14,910 bases of DNA from Candidatus Woesearchaeota archaeon (GTDB taxonomy: Archaea > Nanobdellota > Nanobdellia > Woesearchaeales > 21-14-0-10-32-9): positions 1 to 14,910 of the forward strand of contig SKHC01000014.1 of the NCBI GenBank assembly GCA_007117145.1, in the 5' to 3' direction. Position numbers and translations under genes: made by a program. Of the stretch, positions 2,520 to 14,910 are shown piece by piece. The notes beneath the pieces are model-generated. The model worked only from the letters and a program-made list of their open reading frames with translations. It was not told the origin of the DNA and did no database searches. Position 1 is the first letter of the stretch; the number at the start of each line of letters is the position of its first letter.

Positions 2520-3224
2520 TTAAAGAAGTTTTACAACCATCCGCCTATTATTTTTTCCTTTATTTTCGCCTTTGACAAACTCAAGCGTTCCAATTTCACT
2601 CGTGTTTTTCACGTGGCACCCACCATCTGCTTGCATATCAACGTCTCCAATTTCTACAATCCTTATTCTTTCTATGTGTTTTGGTAGTTGTATTGCAAGT
2701 TTTACTACGCCTTCACGTTTCATCGCAGTTTCTCTGTCCAAATAATAAGTTTTGACCTTAACGTTTTTTGCTATCTCTTCATTAGCTTTCAATACGAACT
2801 CTTTCATCAACTCCTTATCCATATCTTCAATGCTAAAGTCAATTCGGAGTTTTTCAAATCCAATTTGGTTTCCAGTAATCAATGCTCCAAGCTCTTTAAA
2901 AAGCAAAGCGCTTATTATGTGGCTTGCTGTGTGGTACCTCATATACACATACCTTTTTTCAAAGTCAATAACTCCCTTCACAACATCGCCTTCAACTTAG
3001 CCTTGTTTATCTGTGAAATGCACAACTTTTCCATCTCTTCGCTCCACATTCAAAACACCAAATTCTTTTCCGTTAGCAACAAGTTTGCCAGTGTCTGCTG
3101 GTTGTCCTCCACCTCTTGGGTAAAAAGCAGTTTGGTCTAAAACAACCCCTTCTTCTACCACATCCACCACTTTAGCTGTGAATTCTTTTAAGTACATATC
3201 GTCTAAATACAATAACTTAGTCAT
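2520..3224 (-). pseudogene. alaX: alaX, alanyl-tRNA editing protein interrupted by one in-frame TAA
   Basis: Two open segments in one frame together make a complete AlaX-M-like protein of about 234 codons. The first 75 codons (from the ATG at 3224) hold the Gly-rich motif AFYPRGGGQPADTG; codon 76 is TAA (2997-2999); the rest carries the zinc-site motif YHTASH (H98, H102), the TGNQIG segment and QADGGCHVKNTSEIG (H204). AlaX hydrolyses Ser-tRNA(Ala) and Gly-tRNA(Ala) in trans. The family's CxxxH ligand position is Asp here, with Cys next to the His, a variation that may be tolerated. No base is lost or gained: a single substitution, for example TTA to TAA, would explain it. TAA is not known to be recoded in archaea, so this is a recent nonsense mutation or a sequence error. 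A GTG at 2981 could start a separate editing half. Confidence 0.85.
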
Positions 3225-3244
3225 GAAAAGCCTAAACAAAGATT

Positions 3245-5766: not shown

Positions 5767-6282
5767 ATGAAAATAGCATTACTCACATTATTAGTATTAA
5801 TTGGAGGTTGTACTACTATGAATCCCACAGCAGTTATTGAAACGAACGCAGGCACTATGGAATTAGAGTTATTCAAAGATAAAGCGCCAGTTACAGTTGA
5901 TAATTTCGTGAAACTTGCAAACGAAGGTTATTATGATGGAGTGATTTTTCATAGAGTCATCTATAATTTTATGATTCAAGGCGGAGACCCTACAGGAACA
6001 GGTAGAGGAGACCCAGGCTACACCATTCAAGATGAGTTTCATCCAGCTCTTCGACATGATTCAATAGGTATACTTTCCATGGCAAATAAAGGCACACCAA
6101 ACAGTGGAGGAGGTCAGTTTTTCATAACGCTAGTTCCAACACCTTGGCTTGATGACAAGCATTCAGTGTTTGGAAAACTAATATCTGGTGAAGAAGTTCT
6201 AAAAAAAATTGGTTCAATGCCAGTTGATGAGGCTAATCGTCCTTTAGAAGATGTTGTTATCGAAAAAGTCACAATTAAATAA
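5767..6282 (+). CDS. Cyclophilin-type peptidyl-prolyl cis-trans isomerase, probable secreted lipoprotein
   Basis: The protein has 171 residues. Residues 1-14 form a short hydrophobic signal ending in the lipobox LIGGC (11-15), predicting lipid attachment at Cys15 and a location outside the cytoplasmic membrane. The cyclophilin domain starts at about 21. [15 protein letters not shown] (61-75) supplies the catalytic Arg63, Phe68, Met69 and Gln71; GGGQFFIT (114-121) and [14 protein letters not shown] (125-138) follow, with Trp127 and His132 at the usual ligand-site positions. It would catalyse proline isomerisation during folding of exported proteins. The ATG at 5767 fits the shared TATA box 27 bases upstream. 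Starting instead at Met18 would give a cytosolic enzyme, but the promoter position and the clear lipobox favour the longer form. Its stop overlaps the next convergent gene by 8 bases. Confidence 0.93.
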
Positions 6283-9156: not shown

Positions 9157-10761
9157 ATGAATAGCGTAGATGAAATAGTAAAACTTGTAAAAGAGAAAGG
9201 TTTTGATGGCGTAAAGTTAGTTGATCATGCAGCAATTAGAGAAGCAGGCCCATTGATATTTGACAAAGAAAGTCTGACAAAAAAAGGAAAAAAGACACTT
9301 GTTGTTGCATTAGATGATGCCTTTAAACATCTTTATACCTTTACTAATTCTAGACAAGCAAGTGAAAGACACATAGAAACCTTTGAAGATACTAACAAAG
9401 AACTCGCAAATCTAAGCTATGAATCAAAGGGATTTGCGCAAATAAATGAAGATAAGGGATTTGCACGAATTGAAACAAGTGATGAGAATAATCCATCAAG
9501 ACTAGATTTACTTTCTGAAAGCTTCAAAAAAACAGCCCAAGAATTAAACGATGCATTTCCAGATAAATTTGAAGCCATATGTGTTGAAAAACACAATTTA
9601 GCTAATTTAAAAAGCATTCAAATCCCATCAGATGTTTGGCACGACATCGGGCTTAGTAGCCTTAAAGTGTTACCAAAAGGATTTACAGATATTACCACGA
9701 ACCTACCAAATTTTATAAAAGAAGCAGAAGAGAAGCAAGCAGAGCACTTAATTACTCATATTAAAACTAAAGATGAGATAGATGAGCTTAGAAACATTGT
9801 AAAAACGGTAGAGAAAAATAGAAAACTTGACCCTCAGGATTTATCACAGTTAGTAAATAAAGAGTTTCTACCTAATGAAATAGTGTTTTTAAATCTGTTT
9901 GGAGATGAACATCATCTTAGATTCGATCCAAAACAAGAAAAAATAATCTATTTCAATTATAAAGATAAATTAAATGAAATATTCTTAAAGAAAAAAGAAG
10001 GTTTTCATGGTATACAACCTATGAATAAATATCAAAAAGCACAATTTGAACTATTATTAAATTCTGACATTACTTACTTTTACGGGGCAGCAGGCACCGG
10101 TAAAAGTCTCATACCTCTAGCACTGGGAGTTCATGCATTAACTCATGATATCAAAGCCCATGTGGGTAAAGCTAATAAAAAGACAGCTAGAGAAGATTTT
10201 ATGAAAAAATTCTTTTCTGAATATAATCCAACGACAGCAGCGCCCACATACGATCAAACAAAACTAATCGATAACATAACTATACTTGTTCCAACTGAGC
10301 CTGTTGGAAAAGATATAGGCTATCTGCCTGGTTCAAAAGATGCAAAAATGGCTGAGCACAGCATGCACATATATAAAAATCTAGAATTTATACTTTCTAC
10401 TGCTTCGAAAAGTAAAGAAAAGGATAGTGACAAATTAATTATATTTAAAGGTTTGCTAGATATTGAGCCACATACCTATCTGCGTGGTAGAACTCTTAGA
10501 GGATATAATATCGTTGAAGAAGGACAAAATGTCAGAAAAGATGTTTTAACTACTGTTTTAACAAGATATGGAGATGATTCTAAAACAGTAATAATAGGAG
10601 ACCCAGCACAAACAGATATACCCGGTCAAGAAATATATTATAATTCTTTAACTAGGCATTTAAAAGAAATAGCCAGGAATCCTACTAGCGATCAAGGAAT
10701 ACTATTCTTGCCAAATTATTCGAATGTGAGAGGTCGTAGATCTAGATATCATCTTAAGTAA
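9157..10761 (+). CDS. PhoH-like P-loop NTPase with a large unrecognised N-terminal region
   Basis: The C-terminal part of this 534-residue protein is a PhoH-type NTPase, related to superfamily-1 helicase cores. Walker A GAAGTGKS is at 310-317; VPTEPVGKDIGYLPGSKDAK (378-397) matches the family's T-x-P...G-x-LPG segment; YLRGRTLRGYNIVEEGQN (441-458) is the RGRTL/Walker B region; TRYGDDSKTVIIGDPAQTD (469-487) is the motif after it. Walker B reads EEGQN where the family has DEAQN. About 40 extra residues (331-373) lie between the Walker A helix and the TEP motif. Residues 1-290 are not a PIN domain as in PhoH2 proteins and match nothing I recognise; KGFAQINEDKGFARIE (91-106) is a short tandem repeat. 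The start has GTGAT, part of a Shine-Dalgarno sequence, 7 bases before the ATG, as expected for an internal operon gene. RNA remodelling is plausible but inferred. Confidence 0.85.
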   Translation: MNSVDEIVKLVKEKGFDGVKLVDHAAIREAGPLIFDKESLTKKGKKTLVVALDDAFKHLYTFTNSRQASERHIETFEDTNKELANLSYESKGFAQINEDKGFARIETSDENNPSRLDLLSESFKKTAQELNDAFPDKFEAICVEKHNLANLKSIQIPSDVWHDIGLSSLKVLPKGFTDITTNLPNFIKEAEEKQAEHLITHIKTKDEIDELRNIVKTVEKNRKLDPQDLSQLVNKEFLPNEIVFLNLFGDEHHLRFDPKQEKIIYFNYKDKLNEIFLKKKEGFHGIQPMNKYQKAQFELLLNSDITYFYGAAGTGKSLIPLALGVHALTHDIKAHVGKANKKTAREDFMKKFFSEYNPTTAAPTYDQTKLIDNITILVPTEPVGKDIGYLPGSKDAKMAEHSMHIYKNLEFILSTASKSKEKDSDKLIIFKGLLDIEPHTYLRGRTLRGYNIVEEGQNVRKDVLTTVLTRYGDDSKTVIIGDPAQTDIPGQEIYYNSLTRHLKEIARNPTSDQGILFLPNYSNVRGRRSRYHLK

Positions 10762-10794: not shown

Positions 10795-11049
10795 ATGAAA
10801 GCAAGAATTGTTAATTTTAGAAGATCAAAGCACGTAACCAGTAGTAATCACATGGTTGTAGAAGTTGATGGAGTTACTTCGATTGATAAAGCTAAAGAAT
10901 TAGTTGGAAAGAATGTTTCATACGATACAGGAAAAACTAAGATTTCTGGGAAAATCGCTTCTACTCATGGTAACAGTGGGTGCGTTAGAGTTATCTTTGA
11001 GAAAGGAATGCCTGGCCAAGCTATTGGAAAACCTGTTGAGATAAACTAG
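10795..11049 (+). CDS. rpl35ae: Large-subunit ribosomal protein L35Ae (eL33)
   Basis: The 84-residue protein matches archaeal L35Ae: it starts MKARIVNFRRSKHVTSSNHM, then has GVTSIDKAKELVGKNVSYDT (26-45), KISGKIASTHGNSGCVRVIF (49-68) and the C-terminal MPGQAIGKPVEI. L35Ae is an archaeal/eukaryotic protein of the large subunit with a translation-protein-like beta barrel. The length is typical. The TATA box 28 bases upstream supports the ATG. Its TAG overlaps the stop of the convergent coiled-coil gene in the palindrome CTAG, and a run of six T residues follows. Confidence 0.94.
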   Translation: MKARIVNFRRSKHVTSSNHMVVEVDGVTSIDKAKELVGKNVSYDTGKTKISGKIASTHGNSGCVRVIFEKGMPGQAIGKPVEIN

Positions 11050-11429
11050 TTTTTTCCTATTTCTAATATTTTTGCAACATCTTCTACAAGTATTGATGTG
11101 TCTTTAAATAACTGGTCAGAATCTTTTACTAAGTTTTCTATGTCTTCATGTTTAATATCATCTAGACATTTCTTTGAGTCTTTAATCGTTTGCTGTAAAT
11201 CTAAGAATGCTCGCTTGTTTGATTGCTCTTTAGTAAAAAGTCTCACTTCAATGTTTTCTATTTTTTCAATAAGCTCTTCAAGTCTTTGAGCTTTTTCTAA
11301 GTCGTCTTTTTCCAACTGATTATGCTCGTCAAGCTTTTTTAATTGTTCACTATAACTCTTAAGCTTCTCTGCTAATAATCTTTGTTTGTTTGCAAGTTCC
11401 AATAATTTATCTACGTTTCCATCACTCAT
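11046..11429 (-). CDS. Soluble coiled-coil protein, second gene of the leftward membrane operon
   Basis: The 127 residues are nearly all charged heptad sequence, for example LANKQRLLAEKLKSYSEQLK and EKAQRLEELIEKIENIEVRL, predicting a long coiled coil with a break near 70-80. There is no membrane helix, signal peptide or catalytic motif, and I do not recognise a family. Its ATG overlaps the TGA of the membrane gene upstream (ATGA), so the two are translationally coupled. The upstream protein has its own N-terminal coiled coil, which makes a physical association of the two plausible. The stop codon overlaps that of rpl35ae. Confidence 0.8.
   Translation of the reverse strand: MSDGNVDKLLELANKQRLLAEKLKSYSEQLKKLDEHNQLEKDDLEKAQRLEELIEKIENIEVRLFTKEQSNKRAFLDLQQTIKDSKKCLDDIKHEDIENLVKDSDQLFKDTSILVEDVAKILEIGKN
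11050..11055 (+). terminator. Oligo-T terminator after rpl35ae
   Basis: Six T residues follow directly after the rpl35ae TAG on the plus strand. As with the T run after the NOG1-type gene, it is embedded in the last Lys-Asn codons of the convergent gene. Confidence 0.45.
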
Positions 11430-12070
11430 TCTTCCACCTTTCCGATTAAATCAGCTGTTCCAGCTCCAAGCACAGCCAATATACTAATAGCTGCCACTGT
11501 ATTATATATTTGTTGGAGAGAACTTTCAAGTGTAAACACACCATATAAACTAAGTACAATACCTACAGTTACTATAGCGCTAAAGTATATCACGATAGCT
11601 CTTACAGGTATAAATTTGAATTTAAATTTGTCATCAACCTTTCTAAAACCAGCAACATACAAAAAAATTATTATTATAATAAAACTCGTTAAATAAAGCA
11701 TACTGCTTCTAAGATAACTAAATTCAGCCGCGATACTTGCTCCTTTTGCAAATGCGAAGTGGCCAACTATTCCAAAAAATGCTCCAATCATACCTTTAGT
11801 TATGTCTCTGTAAGTTATCTTCTTTATAGCGCTACCTTCAACATCTTTAAGTATTCTCCGTTCTAACTCTTCAATTTTTTTAAGTTCAGATAATTCTTCC
11901 TCTTCACCACTTAGAATTTGGTCCTCTTCTTTTAGTGCTTGCCTTTCAAGACTTAGCATTTCTTGCTCTCCTTTTTCAATTTTAGTTTCTTTTGCTAGGA
12001 TTTCTTTTTGAAGTTTTAATATCTTCTTTTGATCTTTTCTTATCTCTTCAAGCACATCTTTTTTAGTCAT
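11426..12070 (-). CDS. Coiled-coil plus four-helix membrane protein (possibly DUF2391-like)
   Basis: This 214-residue protein has a highly charged N-terminal coiled coil (about 1-78, for example EEIRKDQKKILKLQKEILAK) and then four predicted membrane helices (about 90-108, 123-142, 156-179 and 188-210). The membrane part, beginning ITYRDITKGMIGAFFGIVGH, recalls the DUF2391 family of small integral membrane proteins of unknown function; I hold that assignment with moderate confidence. With four helices and no signal peptide, both ends are predicted on the same side, so the coiled coil is probably cytoplasmic. The ATG at 12070 has a TATA box 26 bases upstream. It is the first gene of a two-gene operon, divergent from the 4-TM and paralogue operon. 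Confidence 0.8.
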   Translation of the reverse strand: MTKKDVLEEIRKDQKKILKLQKEILAKETKIEKGEQEMLSLERQALKEEDQILSGEEEELSELKKIEELERRILKDVEGSAIKKITYRDITKGMIGAFFGIVGHFAFAKGASIAAEFSYLRSSMLYLTSFIIIIIFLYVAGFRKVDDKFKFKFIPVRAIVIYFSAIVTVGIVLSLYGVFTLESSLQQIYNTVAAISILAVLGAGTADLIGKVEE

Positions 12071-12117: not shown

Positions 12118-12132
12118 CGAAACCTTTATATA
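12118..12132 (+). promoter_or_regulatory. BRE/TATA promoter of the rightward membrane-protein operon
   Basis: CGAAACCTTTATATA combines a BRE-like CGAAACC with a TATA box centred about 30 bases before the ATG at 12159. It mirrors the AAACCTTATATA of the leftward promoter 12 bases away, so the two divergent operons have near-identical, back-to-back core promoters. Confidence 0.7.
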
Positions 12133-12158
12133 CACTCAGTCAAAGTATTTAAAGTAAA

Positions 12159-12563
12159 ATGGCATTAACAGATTTCGTAATATTACCAGCACTCCTTATG
12201 GGAGTTGTGCTAAGTTTGATAGAGATTTATTTTGTTGCCAAAGACGAAGCAGGTATGCACTGGTTAAAACACGCCTTGCATGCAGTGCCAGCAATGTTCA
12301 TTTTTACTTTTATTGCTATGAACGCAGGTTGGGCTCTTAGTTTTCTTCCTTTCGGAGAGAGTTTAGCTATAACAGTTGCTGCTCAAGTTGCTATTGGAGT
12401 TGTCGCTATGATTAAAGTTAAGGCGGCTGCAAGTATTACTGGAAGAGGTGGAGTTGGAGAAAGCAATATTCACGTTTTTATAATTGGTCTTTTGATCGCT
12501 GCCTCGCCTTATATTTGGGCATTAGGTCTTGAGCCTTTCATTGGTGATTTGCTTCCGTTTTAG
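12159..12563 (+). CDS. Four-helix integral membrane protein, unknown function
   Basis: The 134-residue protein is almost entirely membrane-embedded, with predicted helices at about 4-27, 40-62, 69-88 and 104-124. There is no cleavable signal peptide. Conserved-looking polar features inside the membrane region are Glu22, and the KDEAGMHWLKHALHAVP loop (28-44) with several histidines; a Gly-rich loop TGRGGVGESN lies at 94-103. I do not recognise the family. It is the first gene of a tightly packed operon (7 bases to the next ATG) led by a strong BRE/TATA promoter, so it is probably abundant and works with the two paralogous membrane proteins downstream. Confidence 0.8.
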   Translation: MALTDFVILPALLMGVVLSLIEIYFVAKDEAGMHWLKHALHAVPAMFIFTFIAMNAGWALSFLPFGESLAITVAAQVAIGVVAMIKVKAAASITGRGGVGESNIHVFIIGLLIAASPYIWALGLEPFIGDLLPF

Positions 12564-12570
12564 GTAGAAA

Positions 12571-14079
12571 ATGAATAAATTAAACCTTGTATTTAGTGCA
12601 TTGTTAGCTTTACCTGGCGTTAGCGCTCAAGGTTTACCAGTTCCTGACGTTTTAGATAATACTATAAGATCAATATTTACAGGTTCTGTTGACCTTGCTT
12701 ATCAAAGACTAATTATTTTTATTGGTGTTTTCACGATTTTTTATGCTGTGATGCACATGCTTCCTTTTGCTCGTGGAGGTTCTGGGTATGATAGTGTTTC
12801 TGCTCCTAAAGGAATTACTATAACTTTATCTTTAGTTCTTTCAGGTATCGCAACGTTTACTATGCCTGAGAATTTGGTTGAAACAATTTTCAACCTCTAT
12901 AGTGGCTTGTTTGGAGTTGTTTTGCTCTTTGGTCCTGTTCTGTGGTTGTTATATATTACTTTTAAGTACATCCCTGGAGATACTCGTGGAGGTCATTTTG
13001 CCAGGTTTTTCTTTTTAGCCATTATCGGACTGATTTTAATGGCGGAGGAGTTGATTTTAAGAATTCCTTTATTAGAACAAATTGGAGCTATGAGTTATTT
13101 GCAATTAGTTGGTATAATCATCTTATTCATAGCATTTTACAACTTAGCTCAAACATTCACTTCAGGCAGTTCAGATAGCATTAGTAGTTCTAGTACTCCC
13201 TCAAATACTAATTACAAAGACTTGTTTAAACCTAACAATAGTTCTAATTCACCTGAAGTTGACGATGAAAAAATGTCAATGGATGAAGAGATGAACACCG
13301 AAAAAGATTTTGAAGATCTAGAAGAGACAGAAAAAAAGATAGAACAAACAGAAGAAAAACAAGGAGAGGAACTAGAAAAAGAGACAAAAAACTCAATCGA
13401 AGCCCTTAAAAAAATGACGGAAGGAGGTTCAGTAACTGATGCACTTAAAACTCTAGAAAAAGAACTAAACAAAATAAAAACAGCCTTTAGAAATATTCCA
13501 GATCCTTCGGAACAAACACTTATCTATCAAAAAGAATATAGAGCTTTGTTAAAATTAACTGATTTGCTTGACAGAAGAATAAAAATTAAGAATTTTATCA
13601 CAAAAGAATTAGAAAATCAAGCAAATAAAAATCCAGAAAAAAATAAGGCAGATAAGATAGCACAAGACCTTCAAAAACAAAGAGACCTACTAAACAAATA
13701 TCAAAAGAGTCGTAAATTAGTAGAAGGACTAACGTTTAAGATTACACAGAGATTTAATAATAATCAAAAAGTATATGCAGAGTACGATTTAATAAGGCAA
13801 AACATAGTTGCAGCCTTTAATAACCAAAATAAACTAATAGCAGAAGTTAGAAACTCAAAAATAAATGTTGAACAACAAAGAATATCTTTGCAAAACTTCA
13901 GTACAACTCAACAAAAAATATTCGAGCAATTATATAAGGAAATCTCCTTGTTTAACCAAAGTATACAAGATATGAAACTTGCAAAAACCACTCTAGATAA
14001 ATTGATTAACGAATTCAGAAATGACTCAGCAAAACACATTCGAGCTGAACACACAATTATGAGGAATAGAACTAAGTAA
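12571..14079 (+). CDS. Signal-peptide, five-helix membrane protein with long cytoplasmic coiled-coil tail (paralogue 1)
   Basis: This 502-residue protein of unknown family begins with a signal peptide (1-20, ending LPGVSAQ), predicted to be cut after Ala19 or Gln20. Five membrane helices follow (about 44-65, 80-98, 106-130, 144-163 and 175-195). The loops near 66-79 and 131-142 carry the basic residues, which by the positive-inside rule puts the C-terminus in the cytoplasm. A Ser/Thr/Asn-rich linker (197-228) and an acidic stretch (229-262) lead to about 240 residues of charged, Gln/Asn/Lys-rich helix predicted as coiled coil. The first 196 residues are clearly related to the next gene. A short AGGT precedes the ATG. 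The membrane half is T-rich and the tail A-rich in DNA, which follows amino-acid content rather than showing transfer. Confidence 0.85.
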   Translation: MNKLNLVFSALLALPGVSAQGLPVPDVLDNTIRSIFTGSVDLAYQRLIIFIGVFTIFYAVMHMLPFARGGSGYDSVSAPKGITITLSLVLSGIATFTMPENLVETIFNLYSGLFGVVLLFGPVLWLLYITFKYIPGDTRGGHFARFFFLAIIGLILMAEELILRIPLLEQIGAMSYLQLVGIIILFIAFYNLAQTFTSGSSDSISSSSTPSNTNYKDLFKPNNSSNSPEVDDEKMSMDEEMNTEKDFEDLEETEKKIEQTEEKQGEELEKETKNSIEALKKMTEGGSVTDALKTLEKELNKIKTAFRNIPDPSEQTLIYQKEYRALLKLTDLLDRRIKIKNFITKELENQANKNPEKNKADKIAQDLQKQRDLLNKYQKSRKLVEGLTFKITQRFNNNQKVYAEYDLIRQNIVAAFNNQNKLIAEVRNSKINVEQQRISLQNFSTTQQKIFEQLYKEISLFNQSIQDMKLAKTTLDKLINEFRNDSAKHIRAEHTIMRNRTK

Positions 14080-14080
14080 A

Positions 14081-14910
14081 ATGAAAAAACTTAACTTACT
14101 ATTGGGATTTATTTTAGCACTGCCCGCAGTTAGTGCACAAGGAATGCCTCTTCCAAGCATGTTAGATAGTACTTTAAGAGGATTATTTGGCGGTGTTACA
14201 GACATTGTTTATCTTAGAATAATTCTATTCATAGGTGTCTTCACAATTTTCTACGCAGCTCTTTTCTTACTTCCCGTACTTCAAAGAAGAGATGGTAAAG
14301 GTCCAACTAAAGGCATTACTATAACTTTAGCTTTGGCATTAGCAGCAATAGCTACATTTACCATGGACGATACTTTAGTCCTTGCAATATTTAATGTTTA
14401 CAGCGGGTTGTTTGGTTTATTTCTTATATTCATTCCGGCTTTTCTTATAATTTATTTTAGCTTCGCAGTAATTGAAGGAGGTAATAAAGGAGGTCATTTC
14501 ATCAGGTTCATACTACTAGGTGTTGTGAGTGCCTTGCTTATGTCAAAAGAATTGCTAAGCCAAATAAGTGTTATAAATAATATTGGCGCTACCACTTACA
14601 TTGAGTTTGGTGGATTTATCATTTTCGTCTTTGCAGTAATCGAATTGTTTAAAGCGTTTGGAGCTAAAGCAGCAGGAGATCCTGAAACCTCATCTGATTC
14701 TAACTCAATGGCTGACTTTGGCAAAGGAATGTCTGATTGGTTAAGTAGTAGAAAACAAAGTAAAGAAGAAAACAGACAAGAGCAACAAGCAAGGCTTCAG
14801 CAAAGAGAAGCTCAAAGGGCAGAGAATCTAAGACAAGTTGGAAAAGATATTGCAAGCCTTGAAATTCAAGAATCTACAGATTTGGCTAGGTTAAAGAAGC
14901 TAATTAAGAC
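14081..14910 (+). CDS. Signal-peptide, five-helix membrane protein with helical tail (paralogue 2; 3' end beyond window)
   Basis: The frame opens at the ATG one base after the previous stop and stays open to the window end (276 codons seen, no stop). The first 195 residues match paralogue 1 in order and spacing: signal peptide ending ALPAVSAQG, LRIILFIGVFTIFYA (45-59), KGITITLALALAAIATFTM (77-95), IFNVYSGLFG (103-112) and GGHFIRF (137-143). About three fifths of the first 60 residues are identical by eye count. From about 196 on it diverges into an Arg/Gln/Glu-rich tail (SRKQSKEENRQEQQARLQQR) predicted as a long helix or coiled coil. The start is fixed by the match to paralogue 1. Identity is unknown; the gene pair is a tandem duplication with different tails. 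Confidence 0.85.
   Translation, partial: MKKLNLLLGFILALPAVSAQGMPLPSMLDSTLRGLFGGVTDIVYLRIILFIGVFTIFYAALFLLPVLQRRDGKGPTKGITITLALALAAIATFTMDDTLVLAIFNVYSGLFGLFLIFIPAFLIIYFSFAVIEGGNKGGHFIRFILLGVVSALLMSKELLSQISVINNIGATTYIEFGGFIIFVFAVIELFKAFGAKAAGDPETSSDSNSMADFGKGMSDWLSSRKQSKEENRQEQQARLQQREAQRAENLRQVGKDIASLEIQESTDLARLKKLIK

What the first reader, a model, noticed from the sequence alone, without database searches (positions are those of the whole stretch)
12571..14910. Tandem paralogous membrane proteins with a conserved membrane half and unrelated cytoplasmic coiled-coil tails
Two adjacent genes, one base apart, share a signal peptide and a five-helix membrane domain (about 60% identity over the first 60 residues by hand count, with identical FIGVFTIFYA, KGITITL, IATFTM, YSGLFG and GGHF blocks). 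Their cytoplasmic tails differ completely: one acidic then Gln/Asn/Lys-rich, the other Arg/Gln/Glu-rich. Retention of the membrane half with free divergence of the tails suggests a hetero-oligomeric membrane assembly whose tails recruit different partners. I recognise no described family. This is the best candidate in the window for an undescribed system.
Basis: partly seen in the sequence, partly recalled or inferred. Interest (0 to 1): 0.7.

Follow-up and report, generated by a model that had tools for sequence, protein, structure and literature searches.

The report
Undescribed archaeal tandem membrane-platform proteins
Two neighbouring genes of a tiny uncultured archaeon encode sister membrane proteins with a shared five-helix membrane part and different tails, and they belong to a widespread, unnamed family whose job in these cells is still unknown.

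Summary
W1 (12571-14079) and W2 (14081-14910, cut by the contig end) share a signal peptide and a five-helix membrane half (95/187 identical; BLASTP 3e-57). W2's tail is cut after about 80 residues, so 'unrelated tails' is only partly testable here.

They belong to a family ('FAM') that I could file nowhere: no Pfam, NCBIfam or PHROG family and no PDB sequence or fold match. A profile finds it in 183 of 352 genomes of the order at E<=1e-3 (128 at <=1e-10). It is chromosomal, lies within 3 kb of ribosomal L35Ae in 35 of 57 loci of this order, and is often tandem.

Two patterns recur. (1) The membrane half is kept while tails differ; one pair is 100% DNA-identical over residues 61-180, with unalignable tails. 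(2) The gene can be split at TM4/TM5 into a membrane ORF and a TM5-tail ORF; two such second ORFs start with a signal-peptide-like stretch, which puts the tail in the cytoplasm.

A 4-TM partner, P134 (12159-12563), heads the operon and is itself a conserved archaeal family with invariant charged and His residues.

Best reading (inferred): a mixed membrane platform with exchangeable cytoplasmic tails. Assembly and function are untested.

The parts
12571..14079 (+). W1, 502 aa: FAM member 1 (signal peptide, five membrane helices, coiled-coil-like tail)
12571..13158 (+). W1 membrane half, residues 1-196
   Evidence: AlphaFold helices; profile match 1-206 of 208, E 1.4e-44 (W1 is itself a row of that profile)
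13159..14076 (+). W1 tail, residues 197-502, predicted cytoplasmic: acidic stretch, then K/N/Q-rich, heptad-periodic
   Evidence: heptad z 6.0; 18 acidic and 7 basic in the first 60 residues counted
14081..14910 (+). W2, FAM member 2, 276 aa seen; cut by the contig end
   Evidence: (E 3.6e-42); contig length 14910
14660..14910 (+). visible part of the W2 tail (R/Q/E-rich); conserved in P0004 (41/71)
12159..12563 (+). P134: 134 aa, four-helix membrane protein, first gene of the putative operon, 7 bases before W1; residues E22 D29 H38 N55 K86 H105 invariant in 93 rows
12118..12133 (+). archaeal-type BRE/TATA-like element (CGAAACCTTTATATAC) before P134; read by eye, no scan
   Evidence: sequence
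11426..12070 (-). divergent neighbour: N-terminal coiled coil plus membrane helices, DUF2391-like (23.1 bits, cut-off 22); relatives recur beside FAM or P134 in some other genomes
11046..11429 (-). 127-aa coiled-coil-like protein; an ORF of similar size (118 aa) sits in the same place in L032 (homology not tested)
10795..11049 (+). ribosomal protein L35Ae, the commonest of the neighbours that I tagged beside FAM in this order
   Evidence: 35 of 57 loci within 3 kb

Best explanation
W1 and W2 are tandem members of an undescribed chromosomal membrane-protein family of one class of DPANN archaea (Woesearchaeota and kin). Shown by sequence: the family, its frequent tandem arrangement and recurrent neighbourhoods, its modular tails, natural splitting before TM5, and near-identity of membrane halves over unrelated tails in two genomes. 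Indicated, not tested: topology with N outside, five helices, tail in the cytoplasm. Inferred: the like membrane halves pack together into a mixed oligomer (a membrane platform) whose different tails, with soluble coiled-coil proteins made from the same loci and in this lineage the 4-TM protein P134, hold or recruit different cytoplasmic partners. Matching interfaces would explain why the membrane half is kept alike while tails are exchanged, and why splitting between TM4 and TM5 is tolerated.
For: Family: 183 of 352 order genomes at E<=1e-3, of which 128 at 1e-10 or better (hand count of that list); 171 of 378 in the class sample, 158 of 327 in the phylum sample (overlapping samples). Control: 0 of 275 reversed multi-TM proteins at E<=1e-3. 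Tandem: 34 of 57 same-order loci with two or more FAM ORFs, 33 on one strand; L35Ae within 3 kb in 35 of 57. Copying: G422 pair 100% DNA-identical over residues 61-180, 69-75% over 21-60, 25-30% past residue 220; G342 pair 90% identical in the membrane half, tail z 1.9. Splitting: 17 of 30 short FAM ORFs listed are TM1-4 ORFs followed, from a one-base overlap to 10 bases on, by an ORF with TM5 and tail (TM5 by eye); two second ORFs (L118; L065, 45 bases on and not among the 17) start with a signal-peptide-like stretch (by eye). Lipobox-like N-termini in 13 of 147 (pattern search). Tails heptad-periodic (z>=3) in 51 of 80 tails of 100 aa or more. P134: operon-like spacing here; FAM-like ORFs (E<1e-3) in the fetched flanks of 19 of 39 named P134 loci.
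Against: No structure or experiment shows any oligomer. Membrane halves are 45% identical or less in 67 of 79 within-locus pairs, and 85% or more in only 2, so homogenisation is the exception; W1/W2 show no conversion tract. In other orders only 9 of 15 multi-copy loci are on one strand. In 23 of 57 same-order loci only one FAM ORF was found, though contigs often end early. 169 of 352 genomes give no hit at E<=1e-3, and that threshold is not clean: an HtpX-like peptidase (L099:515-1396) scores 9.7e-5 with the local profile. P134 is found in 69 of 336 genomes, and in 20 of 39 named P134 loci no FAM was seen in the flanks held, so it is no obligate partner. The copying could be gene conversion without selection, and G422 is probably a metagenome assembly.
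Confidence: 0.5

Rival explanations
1. Paralogous anchors: each FAM protein works alone (monomer or homo-oligomer) as a generic membrane anchor for its own tail; tandem copies are ordinary duplications, and conversion is a by-product of like tandem DNA.
For: 67 of 79 pairs are at most 45% identical in the membrane half; some lineages show position-specific clades, so long-separate histories (a quick tree); one tail carries enzyme domains (GT2 and GT1 in G337).
Against: In this order the copies stay together on one strand in 33 of 34 multi-copy loci; a mere anchor would hardly need five kept helices (argument); in G422 the identical tract ends around TM5, before the tail.
Confidence: 0.25
2. 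A translocation machine distantly like VirB6/TrbL or CedA/TedA: the five-helix halves form a channel, and a HerA-like ATPase encoded nearby powers it.
For: Same outline: signal peptide, outside N-terminus, five or more helices. HerA-like ATPase within 3 kb of FAM in 13 of 57 same-order loci and 10 of 19 loci of other orders. Ted loci contain HerA-like genes and a VirB6-like TedA (PMC9905601, passages).
Against: TrbL/VirB6 is not among the Pfam families listed for 37 members and has no match in the own genome; best PDB sequence match E 0.56, to a cytochrome oxidase subunit; no fold match. In the maps I saw no HerA-like gene in one operon with FAM, and none was tagged on the window contig. Pilin genes were not searched for.
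Confidence: 0.12
3. Sensor proteins: the membrane half senses a membrane or outside signal, and exchangeable tails are outputs, as in modular receptors.
For: Modular tails, one with catalytic domains; short outside N-terminal segments of variable make-up.
Against: No kinase, cyclase or methyl-accepting output domain in the 18 long FAM proteins and one doubtful one scanned with Pfam; one of 37 membrane halves touches 7TMR-DISM at E 0.31 only.
Confidence: 0.13

Closest known systems
VirB6/TrbL and the archaeal CedA/TedA of T4SS-like DNA-transfer systems
   Same: Signal-peptide-like N-terminus (FAM), five or more membrane helices, HerA-like ATPase genes in the wider neighbourhood of some loci
   Different: No sequence, profile or fold match found; chromosomal housekeeping neighbourhoods; tandem copies with exchangeable tails. 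CedA/TedA profiles themselves could not be compared here
Modular membrane receptors (LytS-type 5TM, 7TMR-DISM; recalled)
   Same: One membrane module joined to different cytoplasmic parts
   Different: No signalling output domains found in the members scanned; tails mostly coiled-coil-like; signal peptide
ZorA/MotA-type membrane proteins with long coiled-coil tails (recalled)
   Same: Membrane core plus long cytoplasmic coiled coil, small partner membrane protein
   Different: Five helices and a signal peptide here; MotA/ExbB not among the Pfam families listed for the 37 members
DUF2391 (PF09622) integral membrane proteins
   Same: Archaeal members pair a coiled coil with a membrane bundle and recur beside FAM or P134 in some loci
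   Different: Coiled coil at the N-terminus; only chance-level matches to the FAM profile in the loci looked at (E 0.8-1)

Membership tests
TrbL/VirB6 (PF04610) | Match to the family profile | tested here: not met
   Not among the 25 families listed for the 37 A2 members at E<=1 (the list is cut at 25, its last entries are single matches near E 0.9); 0 matches at E<=0.01 in the own, 80%-complete genome, while the control rang in 4 of 14 genomes, over the cut-off in 1
TrbL/VirB6 (PF04610) | Polytopic, outside N-terminus, inside C-terminus | tested here: inconclusive
   Predicted five helices, lipobox-like starts, signal-peptide-like stretches before TM5 in two split genes (by eye); no experiment
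TrbL/VirB6 (PF04610) | Encoded with VirB4/VirD4-type ATPase | tested here: inconclusive
   HerA-like ATPase within 3 kb in 13 of 57 and 10 of 19 loci; no operon with FAM seen in the maps
Ced/Ted DNA-import system | CedA1/TedC-like pilin gene beside the channel gene | not tested
   No pilin profile was run
7TM/5TM receptor families | Recognised sensor or output domain | tested here: not met
   No output domain in 18 FAM proteins and one doubtful one scanned; 1 of 37 membrane halves hits 7TMR-DISM at E 0.31
Any family with a solved structure | Shared fold of the membrane half | tested here: inconclusive

The most novel reading that the evidence does not exclude
A membrane machine of its own kind, spread over a class of DPANN archaea: a mixed oligomer of like five-helix subunits, in places kept matched by gene conversion, that displays a set of exchangeable cytoplasmic tails (coiled coils, in one genome glycosyltransferases) and in one branch works with P134, a four-helix protein with an invariant charged/His set predicted near the cytoplasmic face; it would organise the inner face of the envelope in these tiny, often host-dependent cells.
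Probability: 0.35. Interest if true: 0.82.

Novelty: categorically new. Interest (0 to 1): 0.62.

Why it matters
DPANN archaea are largely known from genomes, and much of their gene content has no annotation. A family found in a third to a half of the sampled genomes of an order (128 to 183 of 352 by threshold), in recurrent housekeeping neighbourhoods and with a distinctive evolutionary signature (membrane half kept or copied, tails exchanged, genes split at one place), is a strong candidate for an envelope structure of these cells and gives concrete genes to test. 'Categorically new' means that no known family or fold was matched, not that a new mechanism was shown.

Tried and rejected

Results against my reading: P134 is not obligate; only 2 of 79 within-locus pairs show near-identity with unrelated tails, while two other pairs are alike in both halves and tails (L112: 76%, tail z 41.8; L124: 61%, tail z 16.1); in G342 the longer copy's tail matches one gene of sister G340 (z 11.1), so tail replacement is as good a reading there as conversion; the tree is a quick one with long branches, and several position-specific clades have modest support. 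Specificity: 18 of 127 multi-TM proteins not first counted as FAM match the local profile at E<=1e-3; 16 lie in the P134 loci L137-L152, mostly where FAM would be expected, but one is an HtpX-like peptidase (L099, 9.7e-5) and one is unidentified (L117, 2e-4), so hits near 1e-3 to 1e-4 include false ones. One long FAM protein (L060) passes the cut-off of a metal-sensitive-repressor family over 46 residues of its tail (24.1 against 22.8 bits), not followed. Of 20 P134 loci fetched, 19 came from genomes where A2 was absent or weak and one (G213) from a genome with a strong FAM on another contig; FAM-like neighbours were clear in about nine or ten of the 20.

Full report
WHAT IS THERE. The window is all of contig C50 (14910 bases) of a 640-kb, 80%-complete genome. 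W1 (12571-14079) and W2 (14081 to the contig end) are one base apart; P134 (12159-12563) ends 7 bases before W1. A BRE/TATA-like element precedes P134 by eye, so P134-W1-W2 look like one operon; upstream, in divergent orientation, lie a DUF2391-like and a small coiled-coil gene, then ribosomal L35Ae.

THE OBSERVATION. W1 and W2 membrane halves are 95/187 identical and far above shuffles; BLASTP E 3e-57. All five quoted blocks are there, and 36/60 of the first residues agree. The tail contrast is real for what can be seen, but W2 is cut after about 80 tail residues, and full-length relatives with a W2-like tail show faint similarity to W1's tail (z 2.0 to 6.4).

THE FAMILY. Pfam and NCBIfam give no match over a cut-off and PHROGs none of weight; 37 membrane halves scanned one by one share no Pfam family (at most 4 of 37, E 0.048 at best). 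The single sequence reaches 35 of 352 genomes of the order. A 37-row profile (A2) reaches 183 of 352 (99 of 180 good genomes), 171 of 378 in the class sample and 158 of 327 in the phylum sample. These samples overlap, E-values are for one genome, and the genomes that gave the 37 rows are among those searched. Every genome listed with a match is marked same class or nearer, so I claim the class only. By hand count, 55 of the 183 have a best E between 1e-10 and 1e-3, leaving 128 of 352. Controls: reversed multi-TM proteins, 0 of 275 at 1e-3 with either profile; but a real HtpX-like peptidase scores 9.7e-5 with the local profile, so the 128 are firmer than the 183.

NEIGHBOURHOODS. I fetched 75 stretches and added the window; loci were chosen because they held FAM, and contigs often end early. 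In 57 same-order loci with FAM, L35Ae lies within 3 kb in 35, PAC2 in 17, HerA-like ATPase in 13, P134 in 11; in 19 loci of other orders, FEN1 in 14, Trm5 in 13, HerA-like in 10, P134 in 2 (Pfam names for one or two representatives of L35Ae, PAC2, HerA, FEN1 and Trm5). FAM thus has recurrent chromosomal addresses. Two or more FAM ORFs stand in 34 of the 57, on one strand in 33; in other orders in 15 of 19, on one strand in 9 (pieces of split genes count as ORFs). Soluble coiled-coil-like proteins often lie between or after the FAM genes (by eye); one locus adds a Band-7 protein.

MODULAR TAILS. Of 100 full-length members, tails have a median of 182 aa, range 8 to 1425; 51 of 80 tails of 100 aa or more are heptad-periodic at z>=3. 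Of 18 long members and one doubtful one (L156) scanned with Pfam, one (1670 aa, G337) ends in GT1 and GT2 glycosyltransferase domains and one (L060) has a short match just over a repressor family's cut-off; the others have none over a cut-off.

COPYING OF THE MEMBRANE HALF. In 79 within-locus pairs, membrane halves are 22-90% identical, at most 45% in 67; tails could be compared in 52, with z under 5 in 44. Two pairs stand out. In G422 the DNA is 100% identical over residues 61-180 (360 bases), 69-75% over 21-60, 25-30% past residue 220. In G342 the membrane halves are 90% identical with unrelated tails. The mosaic in G422 fits gene conversion better than recent duplication; in G342 tail replacement fits as well. 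A quick tree shows both position-specific clades, some with modest support, and within-genome pairs (G342, G422, G010, G226, and two of three copies in G274). W1/W2 themselves show no conversion tract (third positions agree at 44/95 identical residues).

SPLITTING AND TOPOLOGY. In three families of the order (f23, f86, f21) a FAM gene is two ORFs: TM1-4, then TM5 plus tail, from a one-base overlap to 10 bases on, in 17 of 30 short FAM ORFs listed (several of the 30 are short whole members of other orders). The profile touches some of the second ORFs over the TM5 region only, weakly (domain E 0.03-0.9). In L118, and in L065 45 bases on, the second ORF begins with a signal-peptide-like stretch (by eye). 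With lipobox-like sites in 13 of 147, this points to N outside, five helices, tail inside. No topology program or experiment was used.

P134. It is better conserved than FAM: 499 proteins at E<=1e-3 among 7327 candidates, none of the 120 listed with a Pfam domain; 69 of 336 order genomes; 39 named loci titled Woesearchaeota, Nanoarchaeota, Nanoarchaeia or archaeon but for one called bacterium, including the AR15 chromosome. E22, D29, H38, N55, K86 and H105 are invariant in 93 rows. The AlphaFold model is confident (pLDDT 90.7, pTM 0.86; four helices) and matches no solved fold. FAM-like ORFs (E<1e-3) lie in the flanks of 19 of 39 named P134 loci, two or more in 9. By the positive-inside rule (inference, no program) D29, H38, H41, K86, E101 and H105 sit near the cytoplasmic face.

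MECHANISM. Shown: family, tandem arrangement, tail modularity, near-identity in two pairs, splitting. Inferred: mixed oligomer, tail-borne recruitment, partnership with P134. The signature is what one expects if membrane halves must fit each other while tails do different jobs, but a neutral account (tandem DNA converts, tails evolve fast) is not excluded. HerA-like neighbours invite a Ced/Ted-like reading (PMC9905601, passages); profile tests gave it no support.

VERDICT. Interest 0.62.

Noticed in passing
window 2520-3239 (-): An AlaX-like alanyl-tRNA editing gene appears as two ORFs (2997-3239 and 2520-2981, 15 bases apart), matching tRNA-synt_2c and tRNA_SAD in turn: broken, truly split, or an assembly error; described only.
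   Followed up: partly
window 9157-10761 (+): A 534-aa protein with a C-terminal PhoH ATPase domain behind about 280 residues without a Pfam match.
   Followed up: no
L039:3042-8051 (-), genome G337: A 1670-aa FAM member whose tail ends in GT1- and GT2-type glycosyltransferase domains, which would lie in the cytoplasm by the proposed topology.
   Followed up: partly
L045:5242-6249 (-), genome G342: A Band-7/SPFH protein is encoded between the FAM pair and PAC2.
   Followed up: no
L118:9579-11024 (+), genome G095: The split-off TM5-tail ORF carries a signal-peptide-like start (by eye) and a CarboxypepD_reg-like domain in its tail.
   Followed up: partly
L038, L041, L048, L052, L054, L056, L058, L059, L065: In family f23 FAM mostly lies between L35Ae and a cluster of ribosomal-protein and TruB-like genes (labels by eye), with a HerA-like ATPase and often a signal-peptide-peptidase homologue close by.
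   Followed up: no
window 5767-6282 (+): A cyclophilin with a lipobox-like N-terminus (Pfam; lipobox by eye), a likely lipoprotein.
   Followed up: no
L060:8219-9952 (-), genome G052: The tail of this FAM member matches a metal-sensitive transcriptional repressor family over residues 524-569, just above its cut-off (24.1 against 22.8 bits).
   Followed up: no
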